Source of the DNA: Oxalobacteraceae bacterium
Lineage (GTDB): Bacteria; Pseudomonadota; Gammaproteobacteria; Burkholderiales; Burkholderiaceae_D
Direction: 5' to 3'
NCBI GenBank assembly: GCA_027490725.1
Contig: JAIXXN010000018.1
Location: forward strand, 1 to 64,000
DNA length: 64,000 nt
In this document: piece by piece, positions 1 to 61,498 of the stretch
Position numbering within the stretch: the first letter of the stretch is position 1
How the letters are laid out: every line of letters begins with the position of its first letter
Made by a program: the position numbers and the translations under genes
The notes under the pieces: generated by a model
Databases searched by the model: none
Told to the model about the DNA's origin: nothing
The model's input: only the letters and a program-made list of their open reading frames with translations

Positions 1-1094
1 GCGGCGCGCGCGATGCGCGCTATGTACGCCGTTTGCTGACCATCCACCGCTGCCTGGAAATCGGCGGCCGCCTCGGCATCTACGCCAGTCTGGCGCTGCT
101 GCCGCAATGGGGCCACGCGCTGGCCGGCTGGGCCTTCTTCTGGCCCGTCATGCTGCTGGGCATACTGACCCTGGGCGCCGCCAAGATTCTGGAAAACATG
201 GAGATTGGCCACAACGTACTGCATGCCCAGTGGGACTGGCTGCGCGATCCTGAAATCCAGTCCGGCCGCTGGGAATGGGACCACGTCTGCCCGTCCGACC
301 AGTGGAAACACGCCCACAACGTCAAGCACCACACCTGGACCAACGTACTGGGCAAAGACGCCGACGTGGCCGGTTACGGCCTGCTGCGCATGTTCTCCGG
401 TCAGCGCTGGAAGCCCTTCAATCTGGGCAATCCGCTGTGGGCGCTGCTGCTGGCGATCTTCTTCGAATGGGGCATTGCGATTCAGGAACTGGAACTGGGC
501 CGCGTGCTTCAGGGCCGCATGAAATGGTCGGCACTGCGTCCGATGTGGCTGCGCACCCGCGCCAAAATCTGGCGCCAGATGCGCAAAGACTACCTGCTGT
601 TCCCGCTGCTGGCCGGACCGTTCTTCCTCTACGTCGCCGGCGCCAACGCGGCGGCTAACATCGTGCGCAATCTGTGGACCTACCTGATTATTTTCTGCGG
701 CCACTTCCCGATGGACGTCCACGTCTTCACCAAAGCCGAGGTCGAAAATGAAACGCGCGCCCACTGGTACGTACGCCAGCTGCTGGGCTCCTGCAACATC
801 TCGGGCGGCAAGCTGTTCCACATCATGAGCGGCAACCTGAGCCACCAGATCGAACACCACCTGTTCCCCGACATGCCAAGCAACCGCTACGGCGAAATCG
901 CACCGCGCGTACGCGCCCTGTGCGCCCAGTACCGCCTGCCCTACAACACCGGCTCCCTGACGCGCCAGTTCGGCACCACCGTCCTGCGCATCGTACGCAT
1001 GAGCTTCCCCGGCTACAGCCCATATCTGGACGGTCCACCACCGAAGCGCACGCCCCGCGTCCGCACCACCGACGAATCCGCCACCCCCGCTTAA
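1..1094 (+). CDS. Membrane fatty acid desaturase (5' truncated by window)
   Basis: The reading frame is open to the window edge, so the true start lies upstream; a TTG at 33 is only the first internal start-like codon. The three histidine clusters of the membrane di-iron desaturase family (FA_desaturase) are visible: HNVLH, HNVKHH and QIEHH, near residues 60, 95 and 272 counted from the TTG. Hydrophobic segments lie before the first box and around residues 190-230. The family introduces double bonds into acyl chains of membrane lipids or acyl-CoA using O2 and an electron donor; which substrate and position cannot be read from sequence. The stop codon directly abuts a pair of short direct repeats. 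Confidence 0.9.
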   Translation, partial: GARDARYVRRLLTIHRCLEIGGRLGIYASLALLPQWGHALAGWAFFWPVMLLGILTLGAAKILENMEIGHNVLHAQWDWLRDPEIQSGRWEWDHVCPSDQWKHAHNVKHHTWTNVLGKDADVAGYGLLRMFSGQRWKPFNLGNPLWALLLAIFFEWGIAIQELELGRVLQGRMKWSALRPMWLRTRAKIWRQMRKDYLLFPLLAGPFFLYVAGANAAANIVRNLWTYLIIFCGHFPMDVHVFTKAEVENETRAHWYVRQLLGSCNISGGKLFHIMSGNLSHQIEHHLFPDMPSNRYGEIAPRVRALCAQYRLPYNTGSLTRQFGTTVLRIVRMSFPGYSPYLDGPPPKRTPRVRTTDESATPA

Positions 1095-1199
1095 CCCGGG
1101 GTCAGATCCGACATCCGGACACGATCTGAACTATTGACCCGGGGTCAGATCCGACATCCGGACACGGACCGAACTGTTAGCAAATAGTTCGGTCCGTGT
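1094..1199. repeat. Two direct repeats plus a 14-bp inverted repeat
   Basis: A 30-bp unit containing GGGGTCAGATCCGACATCC occurs at 1094-1123 and again, identical, at 1137-1166. The second copy runs into a perfect inverted repeat, ACACGGACCGAACT (1162-1175) and AGTTCGGTCCGTGT (1186-1199), with a 10-nt loop. There is no U-tract, so it is not a classic terminator. Related copies lie at 18.1-18.3 kb. It resembles the short palindromic (REP-like) repeats of betaproteobacteria; that assignment is inference. Confidence 0.8.
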
Positions 1200-18125: not shown

Positions 18126-18298
18126 CGGGGTCGGATCTATTACTCCAGGCGGCTCGGGGGTGTGCGGATCGGGGTTAGATCCGACATTCAGACACGGACT
18201 GAGCCATTGGCGGGTGATCACGACTCGCGACTCGCGGATCGGGGTCAGATCCGACATCCAGACACGCGACTCGGGGTCAGATCCGACATCCAGACACG
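18126..18298. repeat. Cluster of GGGGTCAGATCC repeats
   Basis: Copies of the short repeat seen near the desaturase: a partial copy at about 18126-18138, then 18171-18196, 18241-18266 and 18273-18298. Copies are often followed by GACTGAGCC and TTGGCGG, as the copy near 1166 is followed by a similar sequence, so the real unit is about 45 bp. No gene is in this stretch. It lies between the Sel1-repeat gene and the phage left end. Confidence 0.8.
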
Positions 18299-18331
18299 GA
18301 CTGAGCCGTTGGCGGATGATCAGGTGAGGTA

Positions 18332-18511: not shown

Positions 18512-18560
18512 GTATCCTTGGCGGAGAGAGGGGGATTCGAACCCCCGATAGGCTATGAAC
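18512..18560. other. Left attachment site (49-bp core)
   Basis: These 49 bp are identical to 61401-61449 at the other end of the prophage. They contain the 3' 42 nt of tRNA-Ser(GGA), from the variable arm through CCA, plus 7 bp downstream. Sequence identity stops sharply on both sides. The copy here has no 5' half and is a tRNA fragment left by site-specific integration. Confidence 0.92.
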
Positions 18561-20477: not shown

Positions 20478-21266
20478 TCAGAACAATCCGACAGGGTCGG
20501 ATGCCTTATCCCAGCTATAAATAATTAGCTCCTGCCGATCGACAGCCCTACCACCGCCGCCGACCGTATAGGAGATCCCGGTAACATCCATCTGAAACCT
20601 TGAAAAAATCCGCCGGATTTCCGGATGATCATTCAAACTGAGGATAGCCTTTCCCTTGATACGGGACATCAACTCGGCCATTCGTTCGTACTCGTTCAAC
20701 GGAAAATCTACGCCATAGCCTGCCGTTTCCAAATACGGTGGGTCCAAATAAAACAGAGTATGTGGTCGGTCATAGCGCTCCATGCATTTGTACCAGTCAA
20801 GGTTTTCAACATAGGCGCTAGACAGCCGGAGGTGGGCAGCCGATAGATTTTCCTCGATCCTCAGAAGATTCACCGGCGGTGCAGTTGTTGCTGTTCCCCA
20901 TGTTTGACCATCTACTTTCCCTCCGAATGCCTGCTGCTGAAGGTAGAAAAACCGAGCGGCCCGCTGAATATCAGTCAAAACGTGTGGTGGCGTCTCCTGA
21001 AGCCACTTGAACACGTCCCGACTAGACAATGCGTATTTGAACTGGCGGACAAACTCCTCCAGGTGGTTCTTCACTACGCGATACATGTTGACCAGCTCAC
21101 CGTTGATGTCGTTAATGACTTCAACTTCTGCCGGCGGACGCATGAAGAAAAGCGCTGCACCACCAGCGAAAACTTCAACATAACAACTGTGCGGTGGGAA
21201 CTGCGGAATGATGCGATCAGCAAGACGACGTTTCCCACCGATCCATGGAATGATTGGCATTGCCAT
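20478..21266 (-). CDS. D12-class DNA adenine methylase (first copy)
   Basis: 262 residues. Motifs of the D12/Dam family are in order: PWIGGKRRLAD near the N-terminus, YVEVFAGGAALFF (SAM binding) at about 29-41 and FYLDPPYLET (catalytic DPPY) near residue 170. It transfers methyl groups to the N6 of adenine. Located just past the spanin genes, it could protect phage DNA from host restriction. No restriction enzyme gene is adjacent. A second, different D12 methylase lies near the right end of the prophage. The recognition sequence is unknown. Confidence 0.92.
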   Translation of the reverse strand: MAMPIIPWIGGKRRLADRIIPQFPPHSCYVEVFAGGAALFFMRPPAEVEVINDINGELVNMYRVVKNHLEEFVRQFKYALSSRDVFKWLQETPPHVLTDIQRAARFFYLQQQAFGGKVDGQTWGTATTAPPVNLLRIEENLSAAHLRLSSAYVENLDWYKCMERYDRPHTLFYLDPPYLETAGYGVDFPLNEYERMAELMSRIKGKAILSLNDHPEIRRIFSRFQMDVTGISYTVGGGGRAVDRQELIIYSWDKASDPVGLF

Positions 21267-38208: not shown

Positions 38209-38282
38209 AGCTCTACTGTAGGGATTTAGGTTGTCTCAAAACAGGGCAACTTGAGACGACTTTTAAATTTTCAGTAGAGCTA
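38208..38282. repeat. Nested inverted repeat element, copy 1
   Basis: An outer 11-bp inverted repeat, TAGCTCTACTG (38208-38218) and CAGTAGAGCTA (38272-38282), encloses an inner 7-bp one, GTCTCAA (38233-38239) and TTGAGAC (38251-38257). The stretch 38219-38258 matches 41253-41292 except at two transitions. It lies directly upstream of the protease start on the minus strand, so it may be an operator, promoter or RNA-processing element. Confidence 0.75.
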
Positions 38283-41252: not shown

Positions 41253-41292
41253 TAGGGACTTAGGCTGTCTCAAAACAGGGCAACTTGAGACG
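41253..41292. repeat. Repeated hairpin element, copy 2
   Basis: 40 bp matching 38219-38258 apart from two transitions, including the inner inverted repeat GTCTCAA-N11-TTGAGAC. Copy 2 lacks the outer 11-bp arms seen in copy 1. It lies after the Mor-like gene and before the gpW-like gene on the minus strand. Confidence 0.75.
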
Positions 41293-49015: not shown

Positions 49016-49270
49016 CTAACTGTGCGGTTGCAGACCATGTGAATCCGCCGGAGCCGCCGAACCCAGTTCAGGCCATACGTTCTGCCAGTCTGACGGCCGC
49101 AAGTCTTTGCGCGTCACCTTTCCGCCCGTGGCAATTTCGATGGAAAGGCAATGCTCAAATGGGACTCCACGCACGCGCCAGTTTCCGAGACGAGCTGAGC
49201 TTGCCCCGATTTTTTCGGCCAGCGAGGACAGCCCCCCACACAGCTGGATTGCTTTGTCTAGTGAGTTCAT
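49016..49270 (-). CDS. YdaS/Cro-like HTH regulator
   Basis: 84 residues: MNSLDKAIQLCGGLSSLAEK, SSARLGNWRVRGVP, IEIATGGKVTRKDLRPSDWQ is the typical YdaS/Cro-family fold (HTH near 14-36). It is divergent from cI and first in the lytic operon, so it takes the Cro role. PR with TTGACC and TAGCAT overlaps repressor operators. The 224-bp gap before the YdaT-like gene (48792-49015) has no convincing gene. Confidence 0.82.
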   Translation of the reverse strand: MNSLDKAIQLCGGLSSLAEKIGASSARLGNWRVRGVPFEHCLSIEIATGGKVTRKDLRPSDWQNVWPELGSAAPADSHGLQPHS

Positions 49271-49276
49271 GCGGCC

Positions 49277-49331
49277 ATGCTACACATATCGTGTACCAAG
49301 GTCAAACTATTTGTGTAACACGTTTTGTGAA
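49277..49331. promoter_or_regulatory. cI/cro operator-promoter region
   Basis: On the minus strand PR has -35 TTGACC (49300-49305) and -10 TAGCAT (49277-49282) with 17 bp between them. Operator 1, TACACATATCGTGTA (49281-49295), lies between these boxes; operator 2, AACACGTTTTGTGAA (49317-49331), is towards cI. Both have TACAC-like half sites 5 bp apart. CI and the Cro-like protein probably compete here, as in lambda OR. Confidence 0.72.
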
Positions 49332-49351: not shown

Positions 49352-50035
49352 ATGAACAAAAGAGCCAACATCCCATGGGAGCGAATTGAATCCCGCCTAG
49401 CCGAGATCGGAAAAGATCAGGCGTGGTTGCGCTCGACCCTAGGTATTGAGCCAAACGTGATCACAAACTGGAAATCACGAGGCGCCCCCTCTGGAAAAGC
49501 GGTTGCGATCGCACAAGCGCTTGACCTTTCAACCGATCAGCTACTGGGCCTCTCCAGCTCCCTAGTTCAGGTCCCGGGCGGGATCCGCGTGGTCATCGAT
49601 GATGGAAACTCCCCAAACCATTACCAGATCAAAAAAGTGAAGTTAAACCTTCGTGCTGGCGTTACCGGATTTCAAACTATTCCCGACATCTACGATGGTG
49701 ATACCGTTAGCATCGCTAAAAATTGGGTTGACCGAAGGGGTTTTCATCCAGGCACACTGATAGCTCTCACGGTCGTTGGTGAGAGCATGGAACCGAATCT
49801 ATACGAGGGCGATGTGGTGGTCGTAAACACGTCCGACACCGCAATGAAGGATGGGGCGGTTTTCGCGTTCAACTATGACGGCGAGGCTGTAATCAAACGC
49901 CTGGTGAAAGAGCGTGGTGACTGGTGGTTATTTTCGGATAATGTCGACCAAGCGAGGCATCGGCCAAAAGGATGCCGAAGTGGCGAATGCATCATTATTG
50001 GTCGAGTCGTAAAACGTGAAACCGACCATATTTAA
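49352..50035 (+). CDS. cI: CI-type phage repressor with LexA/S24 domain
   Basis: 227 residues. N-terminal HTH (about 10-45: RIESRLAEIGKDQAWLRSTL, PNVITNWKSRG) and C-terminal S24 peptidase domain with the nucleophile S145 (VVGESMEPNLYEGD) and lysine K182. A likely self-cleavage bond is A102-G103 in LRAGVTGF. It keeps the prophage silent by binding TACAC-N5-GTGTA sites; RecA-induced self-cleavage would cause induction. Divergent from the Cro-like gene. Confidence 0.93.
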   Translation: MNKRANIPWERIESRLAEIGKDQAWLRSTLGIEPNVITNWKSRGAPSGKAVAIAQALDLSTDQLLGLSSSLVQVPGGIRVVIDDGNSPNHYQIKKVKLNLRAGVTGFQTIPDIYDGDTVSIAKNWVDRRGFHPGTLIALTVVGESMEPNLYEGDVVVVNTSDTAMKDGAVFAFNYDGEAVIKRLVKERGDWWLFSDNVDQARHRPKGCRSGECIIIGRVVKRETDHI

Positions 50036-50774: not shown

Positions 50775-50814
50775 TACACAAAACGTTTGCCTAGATACAC
50801 AATCAGTGTAATAC
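50775..50814 (+). promoter_or_regulatory. CI-controlled early promoter (PL-like)
   Basis: -35 TTGCCT (50787-50792) and -10 TAATAC (50809-50814) with 16 bp between. The operator TACACAATCAGTGTA (50796-50810) covers the spacer, and a half-matching TACACAAAACGTTTG (50775-50789) lies one step upstream, 21 bp or two helical turns away. Sites match those at the cI/cro region, so CI would shut off the PRTRC-integrase operon in the lysogen. Confidence 0.7.
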
Positions 50815-51806: not shown

Positions 51807-52274
51807 ATGAGAAACCCTCTACCCATTACTCGCTTCGACCCTACCGCGCCCCTTGATCTGTCACCACTGATCATCGGCACGCATACCGTGCGGCGCCACC
51901 GACTAGCAGGCACAAACTACACGGTCTACAGCACCATGCACGGCGACGATGTCGCAGGCCGCCAGATCAGCCACCCTGACGCCTCGGACTGTGATTCGCA
52001 TATCAATCGCTTCATTGCCTCGACGCAGCCGCTGCGCGCCCGATCCGCCATGCTGGATACCCACCTGCATGACTCGATCGTTATGACCCTGAGCAAACGT
52101 GAACTGGATGCCCGCGATCTGTGCCGGATGTTCTCCAAGACGTCGGCCATCCTGTCTCCAGTGCTCAGCATGCTCGTTACCGAGAAACGCATCTTCTGCC
52201 GCGGCACCGCCCGCCGTCCTATCTTTACCGCCCCCGCCCTGCCGGCCCATTCCGTTACCCCAATGGAGCAATGA
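51807..52274 (+). CDS. Hypothetical protein upstream of PRTRC genes
   Basis: 155 residues: RFDPTAPLDLSPLIIGTHTV, RQISHPDASDCDSHINRFIA, HDSIVMTLSKRELDARDLCR. No known domain. Stop overlaps the start of PRTRC E, so it is translated with that set. It may be an additional partner of the cassette. Confidence 0.6.
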   Translation: MRNPLPITRFDPTAPLDLSPLIIGTHTVRRHRLAGTNYTVYSTMHGDDVAGRQISHPDASDCDSHINRFIASTQPLRARSAMLDTHLHDSIVMTLSKRELDARDLCRMFSKTSAILSPVLSMLVTEKRIFCRGTARRPIFTAPALPAHSVTPMEQ

Positions 52275-53047
52275 TGTTTATTGAAATCGAGGATCTGGCA
52301 CGCCAGACAACACTGCTGATCACCATCAGCAAAGAAGGCAGCGACCAGCTGCGCGTTGGCATCACGCCAGCACCAACCGACAGCAAGCAAACGCCGACGC
52401 TGAAGGCAATTTCGCTGGTTGGCACGGCAGCCGAGCTGGATGAAGGCCTCTCCGAAGCACTGGTTTTGTGGCAAGCGCCGAAGCGATCCCTCGCCGAACA
52501 AGTGCGCGCTGCCGTTGACGACGACGCTAAGCCTGTGGCTACGGCTAAGGCTCAGCCCGCGCCGGCCAAGGTAAAGGGCAAGCCCGGACCGAAACCCAAG
52601 AACACCGTTACAGCGGCTGCTGATGATGCCGCAGCTGGTGATGCTGTTGGCGATGCCGCTGGTGGCGATGCCGTTGACGATGCCGCCGGTAGCGATGCTG
52701 CTGCTGGCGATGCCGTTGACGATGCCGCTGGTAGCGATGCTGCTGCTGGCGATGCCGTTGACGATGCCGCTGGTAGCGATGCTGCTGCTGGCGATGGTGA
52801 TGGCGATGCTGCTTGCGATGCAGCCGCCGCCGCCGCCATTGATGCTGCCGCTGATGCTGGTGATGCCGCTTACGCAACCGAAGCTGCTGCTCGCGATTCC
52901 GCTGCTGCAGCCACGCCAGAACCAGTGCTGGCCGGCGACGACTCGACAGCCAGCCACAAGGGTGGATCGCAGAACCATCCTACTGCCGGCCAAGCACCGG
53001 ACGGTGACGATCCCGCCATTGATACCTTTACCCTCGAACTCTTCTAA
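52271..53047 (+). CDS. PRTRC system protein E
   Basis: 258 residues from ATG 52271 (52274 is an alternative). The N-terminal 75 residues (MFIEIEDLARQTTLLITISK, then AISLVGTAAELDEGLSEALV) match the PRTRC E pattern. A PKKN-like basic stretch (KVKGKPGPKPKN) and an Ala/Asp-rich low-complexity region follow. That region includes three 14-residue tandem repeats (42 nt each) at about 52664-52789. The C-terminus is TFTLELF. The role of E is unknown. Confidence 0.78.
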   Translation: MMFIEIEDLARQTTLLITISKEGSDQLRVGITPAPTDSKQTPTLKAISLVGTAAELDEGLSEALVLWQAPKRSLAEQVRAAVDDDAKPVATAKAQPAPAKVKGKPGPKPKNTVTAAADDAAAGDAVGDAAGGDAVDDAAGSDAAAGDAVDDAAGSDAAAGDAVDDAAGSDAAAGDGDGDAACDAAAAAAIDAAADAGDAAYATEAAARDSAAAATPEPVLAGDDSTASHKGGSQNHPTAGQAPDGDDPAIDTFTLELF

Positions 53048-53056
53048 GGAATTGCC

Positions 53057-53521
53057 ATGCAAACCACCGAACTGCAGCGCGAATTCAAATACAACAGCGT
53101 CAAACTGGCAGACCCAAACCCGGCTTTTACTTTGGTCCAGGTGCGCGACTTCTTCGCCAACGTCTACCCTGAAATTATTAGCGCCGACATCGAGGGTCCC
53201 GAGATGATCGGTAACAAGCAGGTCTACTCCTTCCGCCGTGCGGTCGGTACCAAGGGTATAACCGTTGCAGTTATGCACTACATCGGCGATGCGACACCGG
53301 CCAGCGCGCCAGCACTCCAACACGTAGCAAAGATGGTGCGCGATCTGGCCGAGCTGGAGCAGATCGGCTGGTTCTACTCGGAGCCGCGTACCGCAAACTT
53401 CATCCGTATCACCGCCGAATTTGTGACCGACAACCCCAACTTCCTGCTGTCCGACATGCACCAGGCACGCGTGCGCGAGCTGCATGTAGCCCACTGCCGG
53501 ATCGGGAGCGATGCAGCATGA
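53057..53521 (+). CDS. PRTRC system protein C (ubiquitin-like), extended
   Basis: 154 residues. Residues 8-70 carry the PRTRC C signature: EFKYNSVKLADPNPAFTLVQ, VRDFFANVYPEIISADIEGP and YSFRRAVGTKG, the small beta-grasp family classed as prokaryotic ubiquitin-like (Prok_Ub). Family members end at about 75 residues; here another 80 residues (about 71-154) follow with WFYSEPRTANFIRITAEF. No Gly-Gly end is visible. The stop overlaps the next start by 4 bp. Confidence 0.82.
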   Translation: MQTTELQREFKYNSVKLADPNPAFTLVQVRDFFANVYPEIISADIEGPEMIGNKQVYSFRRAVGTKGITVAVMHYIGDATPASAPALQHVAKMVRDLAELEQIGWFYSEPRTANFIRITAEFVTDNPNFLLSDMHQARVRELHVAHCRIGSDAA

Positions 53522-53730
53522 AACAGTCCGCCAGCATTAGGGCAACGCTGATCAAGCGACTGCGCGAAACCGGCACTCTGTCGGCCAGCGCGCGCCCAGC
53601 AAATGCAATCTCGGCGATTGAAGCGCGTGATCCGGTAGTCATGACGGTAGCGCGCTTGATCGACCGGAAAAACAGTCGCCGTGGTGCTCGATGGTTGGCA
53701 CCGGCGGCAAGCCATTCGGTGCTGCCATGA
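53518..53730 (+). CDS. Small coupled ORF between PRTRC C and F
   Basis: 70 residues: MKQSASIRATLIKRLRETGT, ISAIEARDPVVMTVARLIDR. It starts at ATGA with C and ends at ATGA with F, so all three are coupled. No recognised domain. If F began earlier, this ORF would overlap it; coupling favours a real gene, but homologues should be checked. Confidence 0.5.
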   Translation: MKQSASIRATLIKRLRETGTLSASARPANAISAIEARDPVVMTVARLIDRKNSRRGARWLAPAASHSVLP

Positions 53731-54821
53731 TGGCCACGTGCGCCGCCGGCGGGCTGGCCCTGCCAGTGCTGTCTACTAGCATCCCGCGCCAGATGTACAT
53801 TCCTGGGGAGACCGGCCTGACCGCCCCTCTGGCACTGGCACTATTGGAAACAGGGATAGTTACCGATGCGATGCTGGCCCCCGGGCCGAATGCAACGCTG
53901 GTGGAAGTATTCAACGAGCCCGATGAGCGCGAGATGTCGATCCATGCCCTGACTACTTGGTGGACGGCGCTGAAAATTAGATTCCCGATGCAGCGCTTCA
54001 ACTGGGATCTACACGTGCAAGACCTCAGCAACATCGAAGACCATACCGGCGGTGACCGAAACGACCATTTATCGGCTGGCTGGTTTTGCCTTACGCGAAA
54101 TCAAAATAGCGATATACCCCGCGTCTCGCTGGCGCGGCGCGCGAGACAACTCGAAGATTGCCTTGAGGGCTTCGGTCAGACAGCACTGGCGGTTCTGCAA
54201 GATGCGCTGAACCATCTCCCTGAGACGTTTTCTCCCTGGTTTGCACTCAGTGTCGCTGAACAGCTTTACTGGCAGGAGAGCGATACCGACGAGGAAATGA
54301 TCGCGCAGGCAATCGAGGAAGGGCGAATAGAAAACTTCGTCACCGGACTTCCCGCTGACGCGGGCACGGGCGATTTGATGACACGCGCACGCTTCTACGA
54401 GGACATGCCTAAATGGGTAACCGCGCCTCAGCGCGTCGTTTCGAGAAAAGCGATTGTGCGCGCTGCGCGCGGAAAACCTTACGAAAAAAACGTGATCGCG
54501 GCTTGCGACAAGATCATCGAAATAGTAAGCCGCCCGGGCTTCAGTCTGAATTCTTGGGATTGCGGGGTACAGGCCCACGGCCACTACAACATTGACGCCT
54601 GCGCGTGCGTGCTGTGGTCTGAAGGCGACACCTTGACCACAGCCATCGACGAATGGCTCGACGACGTCGGCAATGCCGGCGAATACGTCGACTTCATCTC
54701 GATGAATCAGGTGACGCTCAACGCGTCCCAACTGACGAAATACCTGCGCCATACGGAGTGCATGATGGAACTTGCCCAAGCCACCGAGACCTTGCTGTTC
54801 CTGCTGGGAGATGAATTATGA
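53727..54821 (+). CDS. PRTRC system protein F
   Basis: 364 residues from ATG 53727. It begins with LALPVLSTSIPRQMYIPGET, GLTAPLALALLETGI, the pattern known for PRTRC F, and has WTALKIRFPMQRFNWDLHVQ later. Function of F is not established. The frame is open to 53691, but the shorter start fits with the 4-bp overlap. It overlaps protein B by 4 bp. Confidence 0.75.
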   Translation: MMATCAAGGLALPVLSTSIPRQMYIPGETGLTAPLALALLETGIVTDAMLAPGPNATLVEVFNEPDEREMSIHALTTWWTALKIRFPMQRFNWDLHVQDLSNIEDHTGGDRNDHLSAGWFCLTRNQNSDIPRVSLARRARQLEDCLEGFGQTALAVLQDALNHLPETFSPWFALSVAEQLYWQESDTDEEMIAQAIEEGRIENFVTGLPADAGTGDLMTRARFYEDMPKWVTAPQRVVSRKAIVRAARGKPYEKNVIAACDKIIEIVSRPGFSLNSWDCGVQAHGHYNIDACACVLWSEGDTLTTAIDEWLDDVGNAGEYVDFISMNQVTLNASQLTKYLRHTECMMELAQATETLLFLLGDEL

Positions 54822-55552
54822 GCCGGGTCGCTGTTATTGCTGGTGGTGAGACGGAACTGACGCTCACCGATGCGCTGCTGATGTACCGATCCGGACGCGG
54901 CGAGGTCTACGCTACGGTGCACCCGGTGCACGCCGACGGCATTGAGCCGGGCCGCCAGATCATTGGCGCCGGAGTGCCGCTGACCAAGGGCGCGCTGGAC
55001 ACCTTCGCGCAGACGGTCGGACAAGCCACAAGCTTCGGCGGCTTTGTTCCGGATAACCTGCTCTATACGTCGCCGAATATGATCGCCTGGTGGACGCCGG
55101 AATCGATCCGGCGCTGCTGGTTCCGGTCGCAAAATAAGTTCATCGGCGAGATGGCAGCAGATGTCGCCCACCCCGCACTAGTGTTCGTAGTGGCCCCCAG
55201 TGGCTGGTACGTTTTCGCGCTGCGTGAGTCGGTACGGCCAACGCCACAGACGAAACTTTGCCACTCGCCGCACTTCAATGTTCATTCAGGCGGGAATATC
55301 TGCACCGGCAACGTCAAGCTGCCCTCGGCTATCGAGGCTGGCGCGATCGCCGACTACGAGGACGCTTTTTTCCGCACCCGATTTACGCACCCAAACCGCG
55401 AGGGCGCCACCACCTATAAGGGCGGCATGACCATGCTATGGCGAGCCCAAATCAAGCAGGCCAACCCCGATCAGATGCGCCGCGCCCTGCGCGGCACGAA
55501 CGAAACGCTGCAGCGCGCCATCGAGCGTATCGCAGCCAATGCAAAAATTTAA
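54818..55552 (+). CDS. PRTRC system protein B (E2-like, Prok-E2_D)
   Basis: 244 residues. The characteristic stretch CHSPHFNVHSGGNICTGNVK at about residues 148-167 contains H152, N154, H156 and C162, the histidine and cysteine that define the prokaryotic E2 family D; C162 is the probable thioester cysteine. In PRTRC sets it should accept the C protein from ThiF and pass it on. No direct evidence of conjugation here. Confidence 0.85.
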   Translation: MSRVAVIAGGETELTLTDALLMYRSGRGEVYATVHPVHADGIEPGRQIIGAGVPLTKGALDTFAQTVGQATSFGGFVPDNLLYTSPNMIAWWTPESIRRCWFRSQNKFIGEMAADVAHPALVFVVAPSGWYVFALRESVRPTPQTKLCHSPHFNVHSGGNICTGNVKLPSAIEAGAIADYEDAFFRTRFTHPNREGATTYKGGMTMLWRAQIKQANPDQMRRALRGTNETLQRAIERIAANAKI

Positions 55553-55567
55553 TTACCGGAGAATTTT

Positions 55568-56350
55568 ATGATGAATGCCCAAGAGTGCCTGATCAAGATG
55601 GACAGCCTGCTCGAAATGACGAAGGCCGCGTTCGAGGCGTTTGTTCAGAATACCGAAGCTGCGATCCGTGTCGAGCGGCCGCAGGTGCTGTCCATCGATG
55701 AGGACAATATTGAGACTGAAAAGCTACAGATGGATGTAGCGCTGTTGGCAGCAGCACCAGTAGCCGTGGTGCCAGCGAATAGCGACTTCTTCCCCCTGCA
55801 GGAGAACGGTCACCGTTTCTTACTGGCCTCCGACGGCATCTACCTCGAGGCACGTCGGCCATGGCTGCATTTCATCCAGCGACTCGCCGCCATAACCGGC
55901 GTGCGAGTACCGTACGGTTCGCTGACGACCAAGGTGGAGTTTCCATTCGGCCGACTGGGGAATGCATTAACCCAGTTGCAGGAATTCGCGCAGCACGCAA
56001 AAGCGGCGGCGCCGATCGAGGCGGCCGGCAGCGTGATCTGGAACAGTTCCACCGACGCCTGGCGAATTGAATACCCCGAAGTAATTGGCGAGGCCAGTTC
56101 CACCCACATCGAATTCAAACAGGTGACGCTGCAGGATAACGAACATCTGGTGATCGATCTACACAGCCACGGCAACGGTCCGGCGTACTTCAGCGGTCAG
56201 GACGATCTCGACGACGCCGGCAGCGTGAAGATTTCCGGCGTATATGGAAACTTAGATCAAGCCGAGCCTACCGCCGAATTCCGTATCTGCGTCCTGGGTA
56301 TGACCATTCCGCTGAACGTACCAGCGTCCAAAATTTTCGGCGAAGAGTAA
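55568..56350 (+). CDS. PRTRC system protein A (JAMM/MPN protease)
   Basis: 260 residues. The C-terminal half has the zinc-protease motif H199-S-H201 followed by S209 and D212 (DLHSHGNGPAYFSGQD), as in JAB/MPN+ deubiquitinases, with an acidic residue upstream at E151. N-terminal 100 residues have no clear domain. It may process or remove the ubiquitin-like C protein. A GGAG ribosome site precedes the tandem ATGATG start. Confidence 0.85.
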   Translation: MMNAQECLIKMDSLLEMTKAAFEAFVQNTEAAIRVERPQVLSIDEDNIETEKLQMDVALLAAAPVAVVPANSDFFPLQENGHRFLLASDGIYLEARRPWLHFIQRLAAITGVRVPYGSLTTKVEFPFGRLGNALTQLQEFAQHAKAAAPIEAAGSVIWNSSTDAWRIEYPEVIGEASSTHIEFKQVTLQDNEHLVIDLHSHGNGPAYFSGQDDLDDAGSVKISGVYGNLDQAEPTAEFRICVLGMTIPLNVPASKIFGEE

Positions 56351-56353
56351 ATC

Positions 56354-57097
56354 ATGCCGCACATGACTCCTAGCAGAATGCTCGACAGCCAAGTCGATAT
56401 CGCACTAGTCGGTTGCGGTGGAAACGGCTCTCAGATGCTTACTGGCCTTGCCCGGCTCAATCACGCACTCACTGCCCTCGGCCATCCCGGGCTGACTGTA
56501 AAGGCGTTTGACCCTGATACCGTCAGCGAGGCAAACATGGGCCGCCAGATGTTCGGCGCGTTCGATGTGGGCGCCAGCAAAGCCCATACCCTAGTGAACC
56601 GTATCAACGCCTACTTCGGCCTGAATTGGGAATCGCATTATGGCCGGTATGAAGGCGACATGAATCACTTCGACCTCATGATCGTGTGCGTAGATAGTGC
56701 GAAGGCCCGCTACGAGATATCCCAAAGCCTTCGAAGCTACAAAACGCACTATCTGATGGATCTCGGCAACCGCGCCGCAGATGGCCAGGTGCTGTTTGGA
56801 GAGATCCGGGAAACGGGTGACGATAGTGGCGATATCCATGGACACGTTCGTCTACCGTGCCCCTACGCCGTATTGCCCGAGCTGATCGACGTTCATGCGG
56901 TGGAAGATGACACTCCCAGCTGCGGACTGGCCGAAGCACTGGAGCGCCAGGAGCTATTCGTCAATCAGGCGATCGTGACGCCGGCGCTGAGCATTCTGTG
57001 GGAATTCTTCCGTTACGGCCGCCTCACCTGGCACGGTGCATTCGTCAACCTACGCACCGGCAGCATGCGGCCGATGATGGTGAAGGAGCCAGCATGA
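56354..57097 (+). CDS. PRTRC system ThiF-family E1-like enzyme
   Basis: 247 residues. Nucleotide loop G20-C-G-G-N-G25, then D53 in FDPDTVSEANMGRQ with N61 and R64, which position ATP and Mg; the late segment DDTPSCGLAEALERQ has C190 as a candidate catalytic cysteine. ThiF/E1 enzymes adenylate the C-terminus of ubiquitin-like proteins and pass them to E2. It is last of the PRTRC set, coupled to the next gene by 4 bp. Confidence 0.87.
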   Translation: MPHMTPSRMLDSQVDIALVGCGGNGSQMLTGLARLNHALTALGHPGLTVKAFDPDTVSEANMGRQMFGAFDVGASKAHTLVNRINAYFGLNWESHYGRYEGDMNHFDLMIVCVDSAKARYEISQSLRSYKTHYLMDLGNRAADGQVLFGEIRETGDDSGDIHGHVRLPCPYAVLPELIDVHAVEDDTPSCGLAEALERQELFVNQAIVTPALSILWEFFRYGRLTWHGAFVNLRTGSMRPMMVKEPA

Positions 57098-57563: not shown

Positions 57564-57758
57564 ATGAATGCCCCAGCAGTCAACCTCCAATGGGTTTTGA
57601 TCCCGGTCTTTGCAGCGATGACCGGCTACTCCGATAAGGCCGTACGCCGCAAAATCGAAGACGGTATCTGGATCGAAGGAAAACAGTACAAACGCGCGCC
57701 CGATGGCCGAATCACGATGAATCTGCAGGAGTATTACAAATGGGTCGAGCAAAAATAG
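57564..57758 (+). CDS. Excisionase
   Basis: 64 residues: WVLIPVFAAMTGYSDKAVRR, KIEDGIWIEGKQYKRAPDGR. The pattern is of phage excisionases (winged-helix DNA-binding) and it lies just before the integrase gene, overlapping it by 19 bp. It would direct integrase to excision on induction. Confidence 0.83.
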   Translation: MNAPAVNLQWVLIPVFAAMTGYSDKAVRRKIEDGIWIEGKQYKRAPDGRITMNLQEYYKWVEQK

Positions 57759-58900
57759 CAGGCGTAGAAGTCCGTGAGAACAGCATCCGTGTACTGTTCT
57801 CGTTTGGCGGGAAGCAGCGCAAGGAACCTGTCAAGCTCGATGGCGAGTTCCTTGCTCCAACGCCAGCCAATATCAAATATGCCGCACGCCTGATTGCCGA
57901 GGTGCGACAGCAGATCTCCAGCGGAACGTTTAACTACCGCGCCACCTTCCCTGACTCAGTCAACGCACCGCCCCCCAGCGGCCGGACTGGCGAAGAACTA
58001 TTCCACGACCTGATCGACCGCTGGTGGAATCTGTTGGAAGTGAAGGCATCAACAAAGATGCAATATAAGCGGCGCAAAGATAACTTCTGGAAGGTGGCGC
58101 TGGACAATAAGCCGGTCCGGGAATTTATCCACTCAGATATCAAGGCGGCGCTGATCAGCGGGACATGGAAGTCCAACAAGAGCCGCAACAACGAGCTGTC
58201 AATGATTCGCGGCGTATTCGAACTGGCCGTGCTGGACAAGCAGATCAAGGAAAATCCATGCGATGGTATTGATCACGCCGAATTCCAAGTCAAGGGGCCA
58301 GACCCCTTCACTCTGACCGAAGTGCGCAGTATCCTCGCCAGCGTATCCGAGCATTACAGCGAACAGTCGCGAAACTACCTGCAATTCCAATTTTTTACCG
58401 GCCTGCGCACATCGGAGGCCATTGCCCTCGAATGGGCAAATGTCGACCTCAACAAGGGCGAGATCCTGGTCGACGCGGTGCTGGTCTATGAAGAGGCACA
58501 GGATTCGACAAAGACATCGACATCGCGGATAGTGAAGCTGACCAAAGAAGCGCTTTCGGCACTGCTCCTGCAGAAACGGTTCACACATGCCAAAGGGGGG
58601 AAAGTTTTCCACGACCCGTACTACGATGAACCGTGGCTATATAGCAGAATCACCAGCGCACCGTTCTGGACGACTACGCTCAAGCGTTTGGAGATTCGCC
58701 ACCGCCGCGCCTACAACACACGCCACACATACGCGACGATCGGCCTGATGGCTGGCGTCAATCCAGCGTTCATGGCCCGCCAGCTGGGCCACAGCCTAGA
58801 AATGTTTTTCAAGGTCTATGCCAAGTGGATCGATGGACAGAATGATGATCGGGAGATGGCAAAGATACAGGCAGCACTAAGCGCTCAAAATCAGTTATGA
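57740..58900 (+). CDS. int: Tyrosine site-specific integrase
   Basis: 386 residues. Arm-binding N-terminus and core-binding domain (about 85-175), then catalytic domain with R223 (TGLRTSEA), K258 region, Y325-N-T-R328-H, H351 (LGHSLE) and the nucleophile Y360 (FFKVYAKW). It recombines attP and attB at the 49-bp tRNA-Ser core. The attR core is 2.5 kb away, because an accessory pair lies between. Confidence 0.95.
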   Translation: MGRAKIAGVEVRENSIRVLFSFGGKQRKEPVKLDGEFLAPTPANIKYAARLIAEVRQQISSGTFNYRATFPDSVNAPPPSGRTGEELFHDLIDRWWNLLEVKASTKMQYKRRKDNFWKVALDNKPVREFIHSDIKAALISGTWKSNKSRNNELSMIRGVFELAVLDKQIKENPCDGIDHAEFQVKGPDPFTLTEVRSILASVSEHYSEQSRNYLQFQFFTGLRTSEAIALEWANVDLNKGEILVDAVLVYEEAQDSTKTSTSRIVKLTKEALSALLLQKRFTHAKGGKVFHDPYYDEPWLYSRITSAPFWTTTLKRLEIRHRRAYNTRHTYATIGLMAGVNPAFMARQLGHSLEMFFKVYAKWIDGQNDDREMAKIQAALSAQNQL

Positions 58901-58952: not shown

Positions 58953-59810
58953 CTAGGCAGCTTGCATGGATGCTTTCAAACCGGGGCATTCCAAGGAGTG
59001 TCCCAAGAATATCGCCTCGGTCCCGCGATATCGATTCTGTGCCGTGTAATTAAGACTATAGCTCACGTATTGTAAGGGGTTATACAATTCGCGAATCTCC
59101 GGCACATCGTCATATGACACCATCACATGCTGCCTTATGTCCAGCGCTGCTGCTGCGACTGCGGCATGGTCGTCGTGCTGGTAGTGATGTTCGTATAGGT
59201 CGCCGCCTTTCACATAGTACGGCGGATCAAGATAGACCAGCGTCCGGTCCGGCAACCCTGGAACGACAGTCTCCAGAAGCTCCACAGCATCAAGCTGATA
59301 CAACACGATACGGTCATTATGCTCAGCGATCAGCTGTATTCGTTTAATCAGCTCTTCCTTTCGGAAGCGGGCATCAATTTTGAAATTACCGTTTTGTTCT
59401 TTTCCGCCTATGACACCGGCTCGCAGAATTCCAGATCGATTTGTGCGATTCAGGAAAAATGTGGAGAAACCCAATTCGAGAACGCCAGCGGAGTCCTTTC
59501 GCGACTGGACCTCTCGCTGTGCTCCCCAAGTTTCCATGTTCACTTCGGCATCTTCAATTAAAGCACACAGACTGTCAGCGTCGTTCAGCACCGAATGCCA
59601 AAAAGCCCACACTGAACGATCCAAGTCGTTAATATGCGCCGTTTCCACGAATTCCTGTATCACTAATTCTAGTGCCACCGATGCGCCACCGGCGTAAGGT
59701 TCCACATAGTGACCACCCATAAGCCGGTTGTGGCGAAAGAGCGCTTTGACATATTCCGTCAGCTTGGTCTTTCCACCAGGATAGCGTAATGGTGAATGGT
59801 AACTTGACAA
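58953..59810 (-). CDS. D12-class DNA adenine methylase (second copy)
   Basis: 285 residues: YHSPLRYPGGKTKLTEYVKA at the N-terminus, YVEPYAGGASVALELV for SAM binding and VYLDPPYYVKGGDLYEHHYQ with the catalytic DPPY. It is clearly different from the first D12 methylase at 20.5 kb. It follows the ParB-like gene after 61 bp, presumably in one operon. It could protect DNA from the ParB-like partner or from the host. Target site unknown. Confidence 0.92.
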   Translation of the reverse strand: MSSYHSPLRYPGGKTKLTEYVKALFRHNRLMGGHYVEPYAGGASVALELVIQEFVETAHINDLDRSVWAFWHSVLNDADSLCALIEDAEVNMETWGAQREVQSRKDSAGVLELGFSTFFLNRTNRSGILRAGVIGGKEQNGNFKIDARFRKEELIKRIQLIAEHNDRIVLYQLDAVELLETVVPGLPDRTLVYLDPPYYVKGGDLYEHHYQHDDHAAVAAAALDIRQHVMVSYDDVPEIRELYNPLQYVSYSLNYTAQNRYRGTEAIFLGHSLECPGLKASMQAA

Positions 59811-59871: not shown

Positions 59872-61209
59872 TTAAACATGCGTAATCAAGCGCATAAATT
59901 CGGCAGTATTATCCCAAATCGTTAAAAGTTCGCTTGGCAATGGTGACGCATGACGGCTATGAACAAAGGCGTGAAGTGTTGTGATACTGTTCACATCAGA
60001 ACCGTCACCCACCAACCGCGTAGCCAAATCTTCTTGGTTCTTATTTAGCTTGCCTGCCTTCTTGAGATGCGCAGCAGCAGAATTCACCTTGTCAGCCAGA
60101 GTAAAGCGCTTCGGGTCTTTACGGATAATCGTTACACTCTCGCGCGGAAGATAATCATCCAAGCTCAGCTCAATAAATACGCGCAACAGTACTGCAGCCG
60201 CGTTTTTGTTCTGCTCTACTTGCAGCGTCTTCAGCTCACGATAAATCGCCGCTAGCCGAGGGCTCTGGCCGCTGGTCGAGATCACGAACGATTTCGGAAT
60301 CAAAGTCTTGCGCGTCAGTGATTGCTCGCGAACGCGGATCGTCGGCGGCGGGGATACGACTGCTGGCGCAACGTCCAGATCGACCGTCCAAGGACCATCG
60401 ACCGCCTGGGTCTTCGGCAATACCGACTTTGGTATTTGATTCAAGTAGTCCTGACGCTGCGCCTTACTCTTAAGAGTAGTGACGTTCACGTTTCCCTTCG
60501 CGATGTCCTGAACCACATGGGTCACTATTTTTTCCAGTTCCCCCATCGGCACCAGGCAGTCGACCTTATCGCCAGACTTCTCGATACCCATCGCTGCACG
60601 CACTGCCGGATCACCTAACAAGCGGTTAAAAGTGGTGATTGGGAATGGACCACGGACCGTCAACTGATCCTCAGTGAACCAGCCGTTTTGCTTTCCGAAA
60701 TCGAGGAGATTCAAACCAGCGTCGCCTTTACGGAAACGTGCCTTTTGCCTTCCGTCCCAAGGAACCGTACCAGCACCTTCATTTTCGCCTGTATGCTTAA
60801 GCAATATCCATACATCAGCCTCTTCACGTGTAGCAAATGGGACGACATTGATCTTGCTTACCTCATGCTTGCGTTGGGCAGAAAGCTGCTTCATCTTCTT
60901 GATGAACGCTGGCACTCCCGGCCCCGGAGGCAAAGAGTCCAGCATGACCGGCTTAGACAGTACCTTTAGTACCGCTGTACGGCGGTTACCCTCAAGAACC
61001 ACGTACCGGCGACCTTCAATTTCATAAACAGCCAACAAGTCGATTGGGTTCTGCCCATTCGTCGTAATATGCTCAGCAAGCTTTACAGTCTTTGCTGGAT
61101 TATCGAGCAAGATTTTTTCGAGGGCCTCACGCTGGCTCGTCTGCGATGGAAAGCGTGGATTATGCAGATCGAAGTCCAACTTGGTAACGGGTACTTGGAT
61201 AGGAGTCAT
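59872..61209 (-). CDS. ParB/sulfiredoxin-domain protein, possible defence effector
   Basis: 445 residues. N-terminal ParB/Srx-like domain: VTKLDFDLHNPRFPS, YVVLEGNRRTAVLKVL (E73-G-N-R-R77 signature). The middle is without recognised domain (WILLKHTGENEGAGTVPWDG). The C-terminal 130 residues are helical (LKTLQVEQNKNAAAVLLRVF) and end with TTLHAFVHSRHASPLPS, resembling HEPN/DUF4145-type domains. ParB-like domains may hydrolyse CTP or cut DNA. It is paired with a methylase at the attR end and may form a modification-linked defence pair; inference. Confidence 0.7.
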   Translation of the reverse strand: MTPIQVPVTKLDFDLHNPRFPSQTSQREALEKILLDNPAKTVKLAEHITTNGQNPIDLLAVYEIEGRRYVVLEGNRRTAVLKVLSKPVMLDSLPPGPGVPAFIKKMKQLSAQRKHEVSKINVVPFATREEADVWILLKHTGENEGAGTVPWDGRQKARFRKGDAGLNLLDFGKQNGWFTEDQLTVRGPFPITTFNRLLGDPAVRAAMGIEKSGDKVDCLVPMGELEKIVTHVVQDIAKGNVNVTTLKSKAQRQDYLNQIPKSVLPKTQAVDGPWTVDLDVAPAVVSPPPTIRVREQSLTRKTLIPKSFVISTSGQSPRLAAIYRELKTLQVEQNKNAAAVLLRVFIELSLDDYLPRESVTIIRKDPKRFTLADKVNSAAAHLKKAGKLNKNQEDLATRLVGDGSDVNSITTLHAFVHSRHASPLPSELLTIWDNTAEFMRLITHV

Positions 61210-61400: not shown

Positions 61401-61449
61401 GTATCCTTGGCGGAGAGAGGGGGATTCGAACCCCCGATAGGCTATGAAC
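61401..61449. other. Right attachment site (49-bp core)
   Basis: Identical to 18512-18560. The host part of tRNA-Ser lies to the right, so this copy completes an intact tRNA gene. It marks the right end of the prophage. Confidence 0.92.
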
Positions 61450-61498
61450 CTATACACGCTTTCCAGGCGTGCGACTTCAACCACTCATCCACCTCTCC
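61408..61498 (-). tRNA. tRNA-Ser (GGA)
   Basis: 91 nt with encoded CCA. The acceptor stem is GGAGAGG/CCTCTCC, the anticodon loop CTGGAAA holds anticodon GGA, a long class II variable arm follows, and the T-loop is TTCGAAT. Integration site of the prophage: the 3' 42 nt are within the 49-bp core, and the gene remains intact. Confidence 0.97.

What the first reader, a model, noticed from the sequence alone, without database searches (positions are those of the whole stretch)
52271..57097. Complete PRTRC ubiquitin-like conjugation set in a phage early operon, without its ParB
Seen: six consecutive coupled genes match PRTRC E, C, F, B, A and ThiF, with E2-like His/Cys (H152, C162 of B), JAMM residues (H199, H201, S209, D212 of A) and E1-like loop and cysteine (C190 of ThiF). 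Known: PRTRC (ParB-related, ThiF-related cassette) is usually on plasmids or integrative elements and has a ParB homologue; its C, B, A and ThiF are related to ubiquitin-like, E2, JAB and E1 proteins. Here the ParB gene is missing, the set lies between an immunity region and xis/int, and a CI operator covers its promoter. A phage that makes a protein-conjugation pathway early in infection would be unusual and may modify host or phage proteins.
Basis: partly seen in the sequence, partly recalled or inferred. Interest (0 to 1): 0.9.

Follow-up and report, generated by a model that had tools for sequence, protein, structure and literature searches.

The report
Phage-borne ubiquitin-like tagging cassette
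This integrated phage, like dozens of relatives, carries a complete set of genes resembling the machinery cells use to attach ubiquitin to proteins; its tag protein is encoded with a tail that varies between relatives and that the cassette's own protease would likely trim off, predicted to let the phage tag proteins early in infection.

Summary
Six genes pass NCBIfam curated cut-offs for PRTRC E, C, F, B, A and ThiF, inside a 42.9-kb prophage bounded by 49-bp direct repeats at tRNA-Ser. No PRTRC ParB was found.

New here:
(1) The cassette is a phage lineage: 68 loci in one group, including the free phage BgVeeders33; 65 of 68 show all six genes.
(2) E1, E2 and JAMM catalytic residues are invariant or nearly so. 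B's conserved histidine is H191, not H152.
(3) C is a ubiquitin-like domain ending in AVGTKG in 72 of 72 loci, then 0-100 residues of exchangeable tail.
(4) An unnamed seventh component, "s", occurs in 67 of 67 loci with C: 25 fused after GTKG, 42 as the next frame.
(5) In 40 non-phage loci, 0 of 10 without A have a tail, against 13 of 30 with A.
(6) Its promoter repeats the phage's own CI operator; likewise in 24 of 59 phages (1.1 expected).
(7) E ends in a sliding-clamp-like peptide.

Best reading: CI-controlled ubiquitin-like conjugation with JAMM-matured pro-modifiers. Conjugation, cleavage, targets and clamp binding are untested. New variant of a known kind (PRTRC, Iyer 2006 type 6d).

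The parts
18512..18560 (.). att site, left end of the prophage
   Evidence: 49-bp perfect direct repeat with 61401-61449; its first 33 bases found exactly twice, 0 expected
61401..61449 (.). att site, right end, overlapping the 3' end of tRNA-Ser(GGA) 61408-61498 (-)
49016..49270 (-). YdaS/Cro-like repressor
   Evidence: PF15943 E 1.4e-17
49352..50035 (+). CI-like S24 repressor
   Evidence: PF00717 E 2e-19; phrog_4 E 9e-39
49281..49295 (.). predicted CI operator TACACN5GTGTA between ydaS and cI; a half-palindromic partner lies at 49303-49317
50796..50810 (.). same predicted operator upstream of the operon that holds the cassette; partner at 50775-50789
   Evidence: 2 exact matches in the window, 0.01 expected; a comparable arrangement in 24 of 59 loci, window included, 1.1 expected
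52271..53047 (+). PRTRC E: N-terminal domain (residues 2-84), long Ala-rich tail with a 42-bp repeat (3.7 copies, 52643-52796), terminal TLELF
   Evidence: TIGR03741 48/38 bits; terminal motif in 58 of 65 group E proteins; repeat
53057..53521 (+). PRTRC C: pro-ubiquitin-like protein, Ubl residues 1-67, helical tail 68-154
   Evidence: TIGR03738 100/46 bits; PF14454; AF2 model: beta-grasp 7-61, low-confidence segment 64-83, three helices
53246..53257 (+). codons of GTKG (residues 64-67), predicted cleavage/conjugation terminus
   Evidence: AVGTKG in 72 of 72 loci; the next position has 14 different amino acids or a stop
53518..53730 (+). s: unnamed small protein ending LAPAASHSVLP; homologue of the V-type tail that in 25 phages is fused to C
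   Evidence: 67 of 67 group loci with C carry it, 25 fused and 42 separate
53727..54821 (+). PRTRC F, alpha-helical protein (scored as the longest frame from 53691; start 53727 inferred from the ATGA overlap with s)
   Evidence: TIGR03742 63/58 bits
54818..55552 (+). PRTRC B, E2-like; C162 and H191
55568..56350 (+). PRTRC A, JAMM peptidase (E151, H199, H201, S209, D212) with a phage-type N-terminal extension
   Evidence: TIGR03735 221/102 bits; JAMM residues 99-100% of 88 rows; extension in 60 of 68 group rows, 0 of 20 others
56354..57097 (+). PRTRC ThiF, E1-like adenylating protein, C190
   Evidence: TIGR03736 306/145 bits; nucleotide-loop glycines and C190 in 93 of 93 rows
57564..57758 (+). 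putative excisionase
   Evidence: PF06806 E 0.007, below its cut-off
57740..58900 (+). tyrosine integrase
   Evidence: PF00589 E 5e-16; phrog_1 E 6e-54

Best explanation
The window's prophage encodes E1-like (ThiF), E2-like (B), JAMM-peptidase (A) and ubiquitin-like (C) proteins with conserved catalytic residues, and these likely work as a phage protein-tagging pathway in which A would trim the tail off C at GTKG so that ThiF and B could attach C to target proteins. Inferred order of events: CI cleavage, or infection of a naive cell, frees the PL-like promoter near 50.8 kb and the operon through xis and int is made early. C is translated as a pro-modifier. The JAMM protein cuts after Gly67, releasing the Ubl and a small tail domain (W-type here; the s domain in other phages). 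ThiF adenylates Gly67 and probably carries it on C190; B (C162/H191) passes it to targets; A can also remove it. E (short domain, flexible linker, terminal TLELF-like peptide) probably directs the machinery, most plausibly to the sliding clamp at phage replication forks. Shown: sequences, gene order, conservation, operator repeats, tail exchange, the s component. Inferred: cleavage, activation, conjugation, early timing, clamp docking and targets. My odds: active Ubl activation and conjugation 0.75; JAMM trimming at GTKG 0.75; CI-repressed lytic/early expression 0.85; clamp docking by E 0.3.
Confidence: 0.62

Rival explanations
1. A prophage-borne defence or superinfection-exclusion cassette: the Ubl pathway tags proteins of competing phages, as Bil and CBASS-type systems do, and protects the lysogen.
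For: Known bacterial Ubl systems act in anti-phage defence (recalled; see also PMC11153139, listing and start of abstract only). ThiF has weak PADLOC E1-E2 matches, best E 5.7e-8.
Against: The operon carries the phage's own predicted CI operator at its promoter, so it should be off in the lysogen; E, C, F, B and A have no PADLOC match; in the window it lies in the PL-type slot next to xis/int.
Confidence: 0.15
2. A plasmid-derived stability module retained by a phage with a plasmid-like stage; PRTRC serves maintenance or partition.
For: On plasmids the same gene order follows a ParB-family gene in 17 of 23 fetched loci (one of them with dnaN in between; in a further one, L170, the stretch begins at E, so upstream was not seen).
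Against: No ParB found in the phage group; the window has integrase and att repeats; the set carries a CI operator.
Confidence: 0.08
3. The tail is not cut: C acts as a Ubl-tethered adaptor, and ThiF/B perform sulfur transfer or another ThiS/MoaD-like reaction rather than conjugation.
For: ThiF resembles thiamine ThiF (TIGR02356 E 4e-8); Ubl/ThiF pairs also serve sulfur transfer (recalled).
Against: An E2-like protein with invariant Cys and an intact JAMM peptidase have no known role in sulfur transfer (recalled); tails are swapped, or absent, exactly at GTKG.
Confidence: 0.1

Closest known systems
PRTRC system of plasmids and integrative elements (TIGR03734-03742)
   Same: Same protein families and same order E-C-F-B-A-ThiF
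   Different: No ParB found in the phage group; CI operator; s in every group locus with C; tail over 10 residues on C in 56 of 67, against 7 of 40 non-phage loci; N-terminal extension on A
Iyer et al. 2006 operon type 6d (PMC1779556: section 14 and found passages read)
   Same: Ub-like protein with C-terminal Gly, JAB with N-terminal domain, E1-like, E2-like with downstream His, alpha-helical protein
   Different: They describe the Ub-like protein as small and standalone; phage carriage, C-terminal tails, s and repressor control of this type are not in the passages I read
Type II CBASS Cap2/Cap3, BilABCD and Bub bacterial ubiquitin-like pathways (recalled)
   Same: Bacterial E1/E2/JAMM-type conjugation logic
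   Different: Those fuse or pair other components and serve the host; PRTRC E1, E2 and JAMM are separate proteins and here belong to a phage
Eukaryotic ubiquitin/SUMO/NEDD8 precursors (recalled)
   Same: Modifier made with C-terminal extra residues or fused domains, cut at a terminal Gly
   Different: Here the predicted processing enzyme is a JAMM protein of the same operon and the terminal motif is GTKG, not GG
Lambda/T1 TAPI-TAPK Ub-JAB tail-assembly pair (PMC1779556 passages)
   Same: Phage Ub-like domain followed by a C-terminal domain, with a JAB peptidase encoded nearby
   Different: Tail-assembly genes; no E1 or E2 in the passages read

Membership tests
PRTRC system | C, B, A, ThiF, E, F orthologues over curated cut-offs | tested here: met
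   Six of six
PRTRC system | Gene order E-C-F-B-A-ThiF | tested here: met
   Same order as plasmid loci
PRTRC system | ParB-family member (part of the acronym) | tested here: not met
   Own genome: none over cut-off; 48 of 50 viral records none. Also not seen beside some plasmid sets (e.g. L127, L131), so not universal
PRTRC system | Protein D (TIGR03739) | tested here: inconclusive
   No match in the own genome, but the search rang in no control genome either
Iyer 6d operon type | E2-like with Cys and a conserved downstream His | tested here: met
   C162 93 of 93, H191 99% of 93
Iyer 6d operon type | Ub-like protein with highly conserved terminal Gly | tested here: met
   GTKG 72 of 72, as the end of the domain rather than of the protein in most phages
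Iyer 6d operon type | JAMM/JAB peptidase with an N-terminal domain | tested here: met
   DUF2016 + Prok-JAB; motif residues 99-100% of 88 rows
Ubiquitin-like conjugation system | Covalent attachment of C to other proteins | not testable with these tools
   Needs biochemistry or mass spectrometry
Ubiquitin-like conjugation system | E2 and beta-grasp folds | tested here: inconclusive
Sliding-clamp ligand (protein E) | Q-aliphatic-x-[L/M]-[F/L] peptide (PMC11139829, passages) | tested here: inconclusive
   Last four residues fit in 48 of 65, but position 1 is Q in 0 of 65
PADLOC defence systems | Complete known system | tested here: not met
   Only weak E1-E2 matches for ThiF; the other five proteins none

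The most novel reading that the evidence does not exclude
A clade of temperate phages has turned a plasmid cassette into an early, repressor-controlled ubiquitin-like pathway of its own: pro-modifiers with interchangeable C-terminal domains are cut at GTKG by a phage JAMM peptidase, releasing modifier and tail together, and protein E docks the conjugation machinery on the host's sliding clamp, a viral counterpart of PCNA ubiquitination/SUMOylation that rewires the replication fork.
Probability: 0.22. Interest if true: 0.93.

Novelty: new variant of a known kind. Interest (0 to 1): 0.8.

Why it matters
In the searches made here PRTRC appears as a named but unexplained system. The phage group gives it a setting where function is testable: a probably inducible operon, a free phage that carries it (BgVeeders33), many natural variants, and sharp predictions (a cut after Gly67 by A, an s peptide, a clamp-binding tip on E). 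If true, temperate phages run a ubiquitin-like conjugation pathway during infection, and modifier maturation by a JAMM protease with swappable tails exists in phages.

Tried and rejected
Rejected: the 445-aa protein at 59872-61209 as a missing ParB. A ParB-like string caught my eye (recalled motif), but it has no Pfam or NCBIfam ParB match and no similarity to one PRTRC ParB (E 0.29). Rejected: CI side = lysogenic operon. I first noted that the cassette lies on the cI strand; the operator upstream of 50.8 kb makes it a PL-type operon instead.

Led nowhere: phage collection at DNA level (no match); solved-structure sequence searches for C and ThiF (no match) and for B and A (two unrelated weak matches each, E 0.29 or worse); PRTRC D (uninformative); s in plasmid loci (one hit at E 0.0017, the fused C of L126; other similarly placed frames weak), so s as a general PRTRC part is suggested, not shown; genomes of the class gave 2 of 369 with C over cut-off, the own one included; independent-pairs test without power. 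Foldseek gave no hit at E 0.001 or better for C or B.

Counts against or mended: in the tree my labels were wrong for the window (tagged plasmid) and L095-L100 (tagged phage); the group was redefined by hand. L150's A first looked motif-less; its JAMM has a longer loop and I count it as present. I set two non-phage tails (L131, L169) at 63 by eye; they are 61, which changes no count. dnaN neighbourhood: 3 of 23 loci, weak support; a relative of the L172 dnaN occurs in 451 of 72,556 plasmid records, of the L169 one in 67, of the L168 one in 254. The s profile was trained on 17 of the 42 separate frames that it then recovered.

Literature, ten searches: 'PRTRC' found 26 papers, with 'ubiquitin' 1 (unrelated), with 'phage' 7 (seen as listing and start of abstract only); 'phage-encoded ubiquitin' 0. 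Subscription papers and preprints are not held, so absence from print is not shown.
Full report
1. The element. The window holds a 42.9-kb prophage between 49-bp perfect direct repeats (18512-18560, 61401-61449), the right one overlapping the 3' end of tRNA-Ser(GGA). It has terminase subunits, portal, head protease, tape measure, endolysin, primase and integrase genes. The window lies in a 5.14-Mb draft genome; nearest named ThiF loci are Massilia, Duganella and Janthinobacterium.

2. The cassette. E, C, F, B, A and ThiF pass NCBIfam curated cut-offs and, E excepted, Pfam's. The frames are tightly coupled: ATGA overlaps at p155/E, C/s, s/F and F/B, and gaps of 9, 15 and 3 bases after E, B and A. 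No PRTRC ParB exceeds its cut-off in the genome. One copy of ThiF is over cut-off.

3. A phage lineage. ThiF relatives: 3 of 50,697 phage records, best BgVeeders33 at 57.7%; 384 of 72,556 plasmid records, best listed 46.3%; 66 viral-contig loci; 19 genome-contig loci. In a tree of ThiF+B+A with 93 rows, 68 rows form one group with support 99: the window, BgVeeders33, 58 viral contigs and 8 genome contigs; ThiF identity to the window is 58-75%, against at most 52% outside. 65 of the 68 show all six genes; L011 lacks E and C, L014 and L046 lack E in the stretch held. BgVeeders33 is a sequenced sewage phage with capsid, terminase and tail genes. L062 and L064, which have ParB, fall outside. Of 50 viral records searched, 48 have no PRTRC_parB; the two hits are these; no frame in the stretches of the 68 resembles two plasmid ParB proteins. 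Records may be fragments. Terminase: 24 of 50 records match phrog_15 at E 0.001 or better, 17 of them strongly (E under 1e-170); 9 match phrog_2, 6 strongly; other terminase families were not tested. The window's own integrase finds a similar one in the held stretch of only 2 of 68, the window among them, so integrases differ or lie outside the stretches. Prevalence, own genome included: ThiF over cut-off in 8 of 195 genomes of the family; C over cut-off in 12 of 399 of the order, 5 of 398 of the phylum, 2 of 369 of the class.

4. Catalysis. In the alignments, B C162 is present in 93 of 93 rows and H191 in 99%; A E151, H199, H201, D212 in all 88 and S209 in 99%; ThiF glycines 20, 22, 23, 25, plus D53, N61, R64, Q65, K76, D114 and C190 in 93 of 93. 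H152 is not among the conserved columns. Iyer et al. 2006 (PMC1779556, section 14 read) describe this family (type 6d) with the histidine downstream of the cysteine.

6. Who cuts? Non-phage loci give a test. In 40 loci (23 plasmid, 17 other genome stretches; L160 without C and L166, a phage copy, left out), C ends at the conserved Gly/Ala with nothing after it in all 10 loci where no A was found, while 13 of 30 with A have 2-72 extra residues (Fisher two-sided 0.016). Long tails alone: 7 of 30 against 0 of 10, one-sided 0.11. Kinship was not removed: independent pairs were too few, and the tree needs 5 changes of A but well-supported branches force only 1. In the phage group A is present in all 68 rows. 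This fits A as the maturation peptidase.

7. Control. CI and YdaS diverge at 49.3 kb. TACACN5GTGTA occurs there and at 50796, upstream of the first gene of the rightward operon, and nowhere else in the window (0.01 expected); two partner half-palindromes add to it. In 59 group loci with a CI-type gene I asked whether a gapped palindrome near the start of cI recurs between cI and the cassette: 24 did, 1.1 expected from shuffled sequence, with many different operator sequences among them. A few of the 24 (e.g. L021, L048) rest on or include GC-rich palindromes; 35 gave none. So the cassette is most likely in a PL-type early operon, repressed in the lysogen.

8. Where does it act? E ends in a short hydrophobic motif (TLDLF, TLELF, GVDLL, GIDLL and the like) in 58 of 65 group proteins, against 21 of 7834 internal positions of the same tails; the pattern was written after seeing the ends. 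The sliding-clamp consensus is Q-aliphatic-x-[L/M]-[F/L], with Gln important but not essential (PMC11139829, passages); 48 of 65 fit in the last four residues, none has Q. Of 21 plasmid E proteins 7 end SLF, SLL or QLF. Three of 23 plasmid loci have an annotated DNA polymerase III beta gene within 7 kb of ThiF, in three genera. This points to the replication clamp but is weak.

10. Verdict. Known family, new phage branch with its own architecture: no ParB found, a repressor operator, seven components, mostly tailed pro-modifier, extended A (60 of 68 rows against 0 of 20). Function as a conjugation pathway is the best reading; no experiment has touched it here.

Noticed in passing
window 53518-53730: Unnamed seventh PRTRC component s (ends VLP), fused to C in 25 of 67 phages; similarly placed frames follow C in several plasmids (annotated hypothetical in L124, L127, L167, L170).
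   Followed up: partly
L168 2353-3507, L169 92-1216, L172 11554-12660: Plasmid-borne DNA polymerase III beta (sliding clamp) genes close to PRTRC cassettes in Aeromonas, Xanthomonas and Pseudomonas plasmids.
   Followed up: partly
window 20478-21266 (-) and 58953-59810 (-): Two related Dam-type adenine methyltransferase frames near the two ends of the prophage.
   Followed up: no
window 59872-61209 (-): 445-aa protein between integrase and tRNA, matches only unknown PHROGs (phrog_9592, E 6e-64); next to the Dam gene, possibly a cargo or defence pair.
   Followed up: partly
window 38219-38258 and 41253-41292: 40-nt near-identical repeat (95%) flanking the portal gene region.
   Followed up: no
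window 1086-1190 and 18159-18322: GGGGTCAGATCCGACATCC repeat family outside the prophage, one cluster just left of the left att.
   Followed up: no
proteins P0016 and P0021 (protein search): C proteins with tails of about 150 residues: an extra stretch between GTKG and a W-type end.
   Followed up: no
L063 7046 (+): A Ubl tail with a C-x2-C and H-x2-C-x2-C-like pattern, possibly zinc-binding.
   Followed up: no
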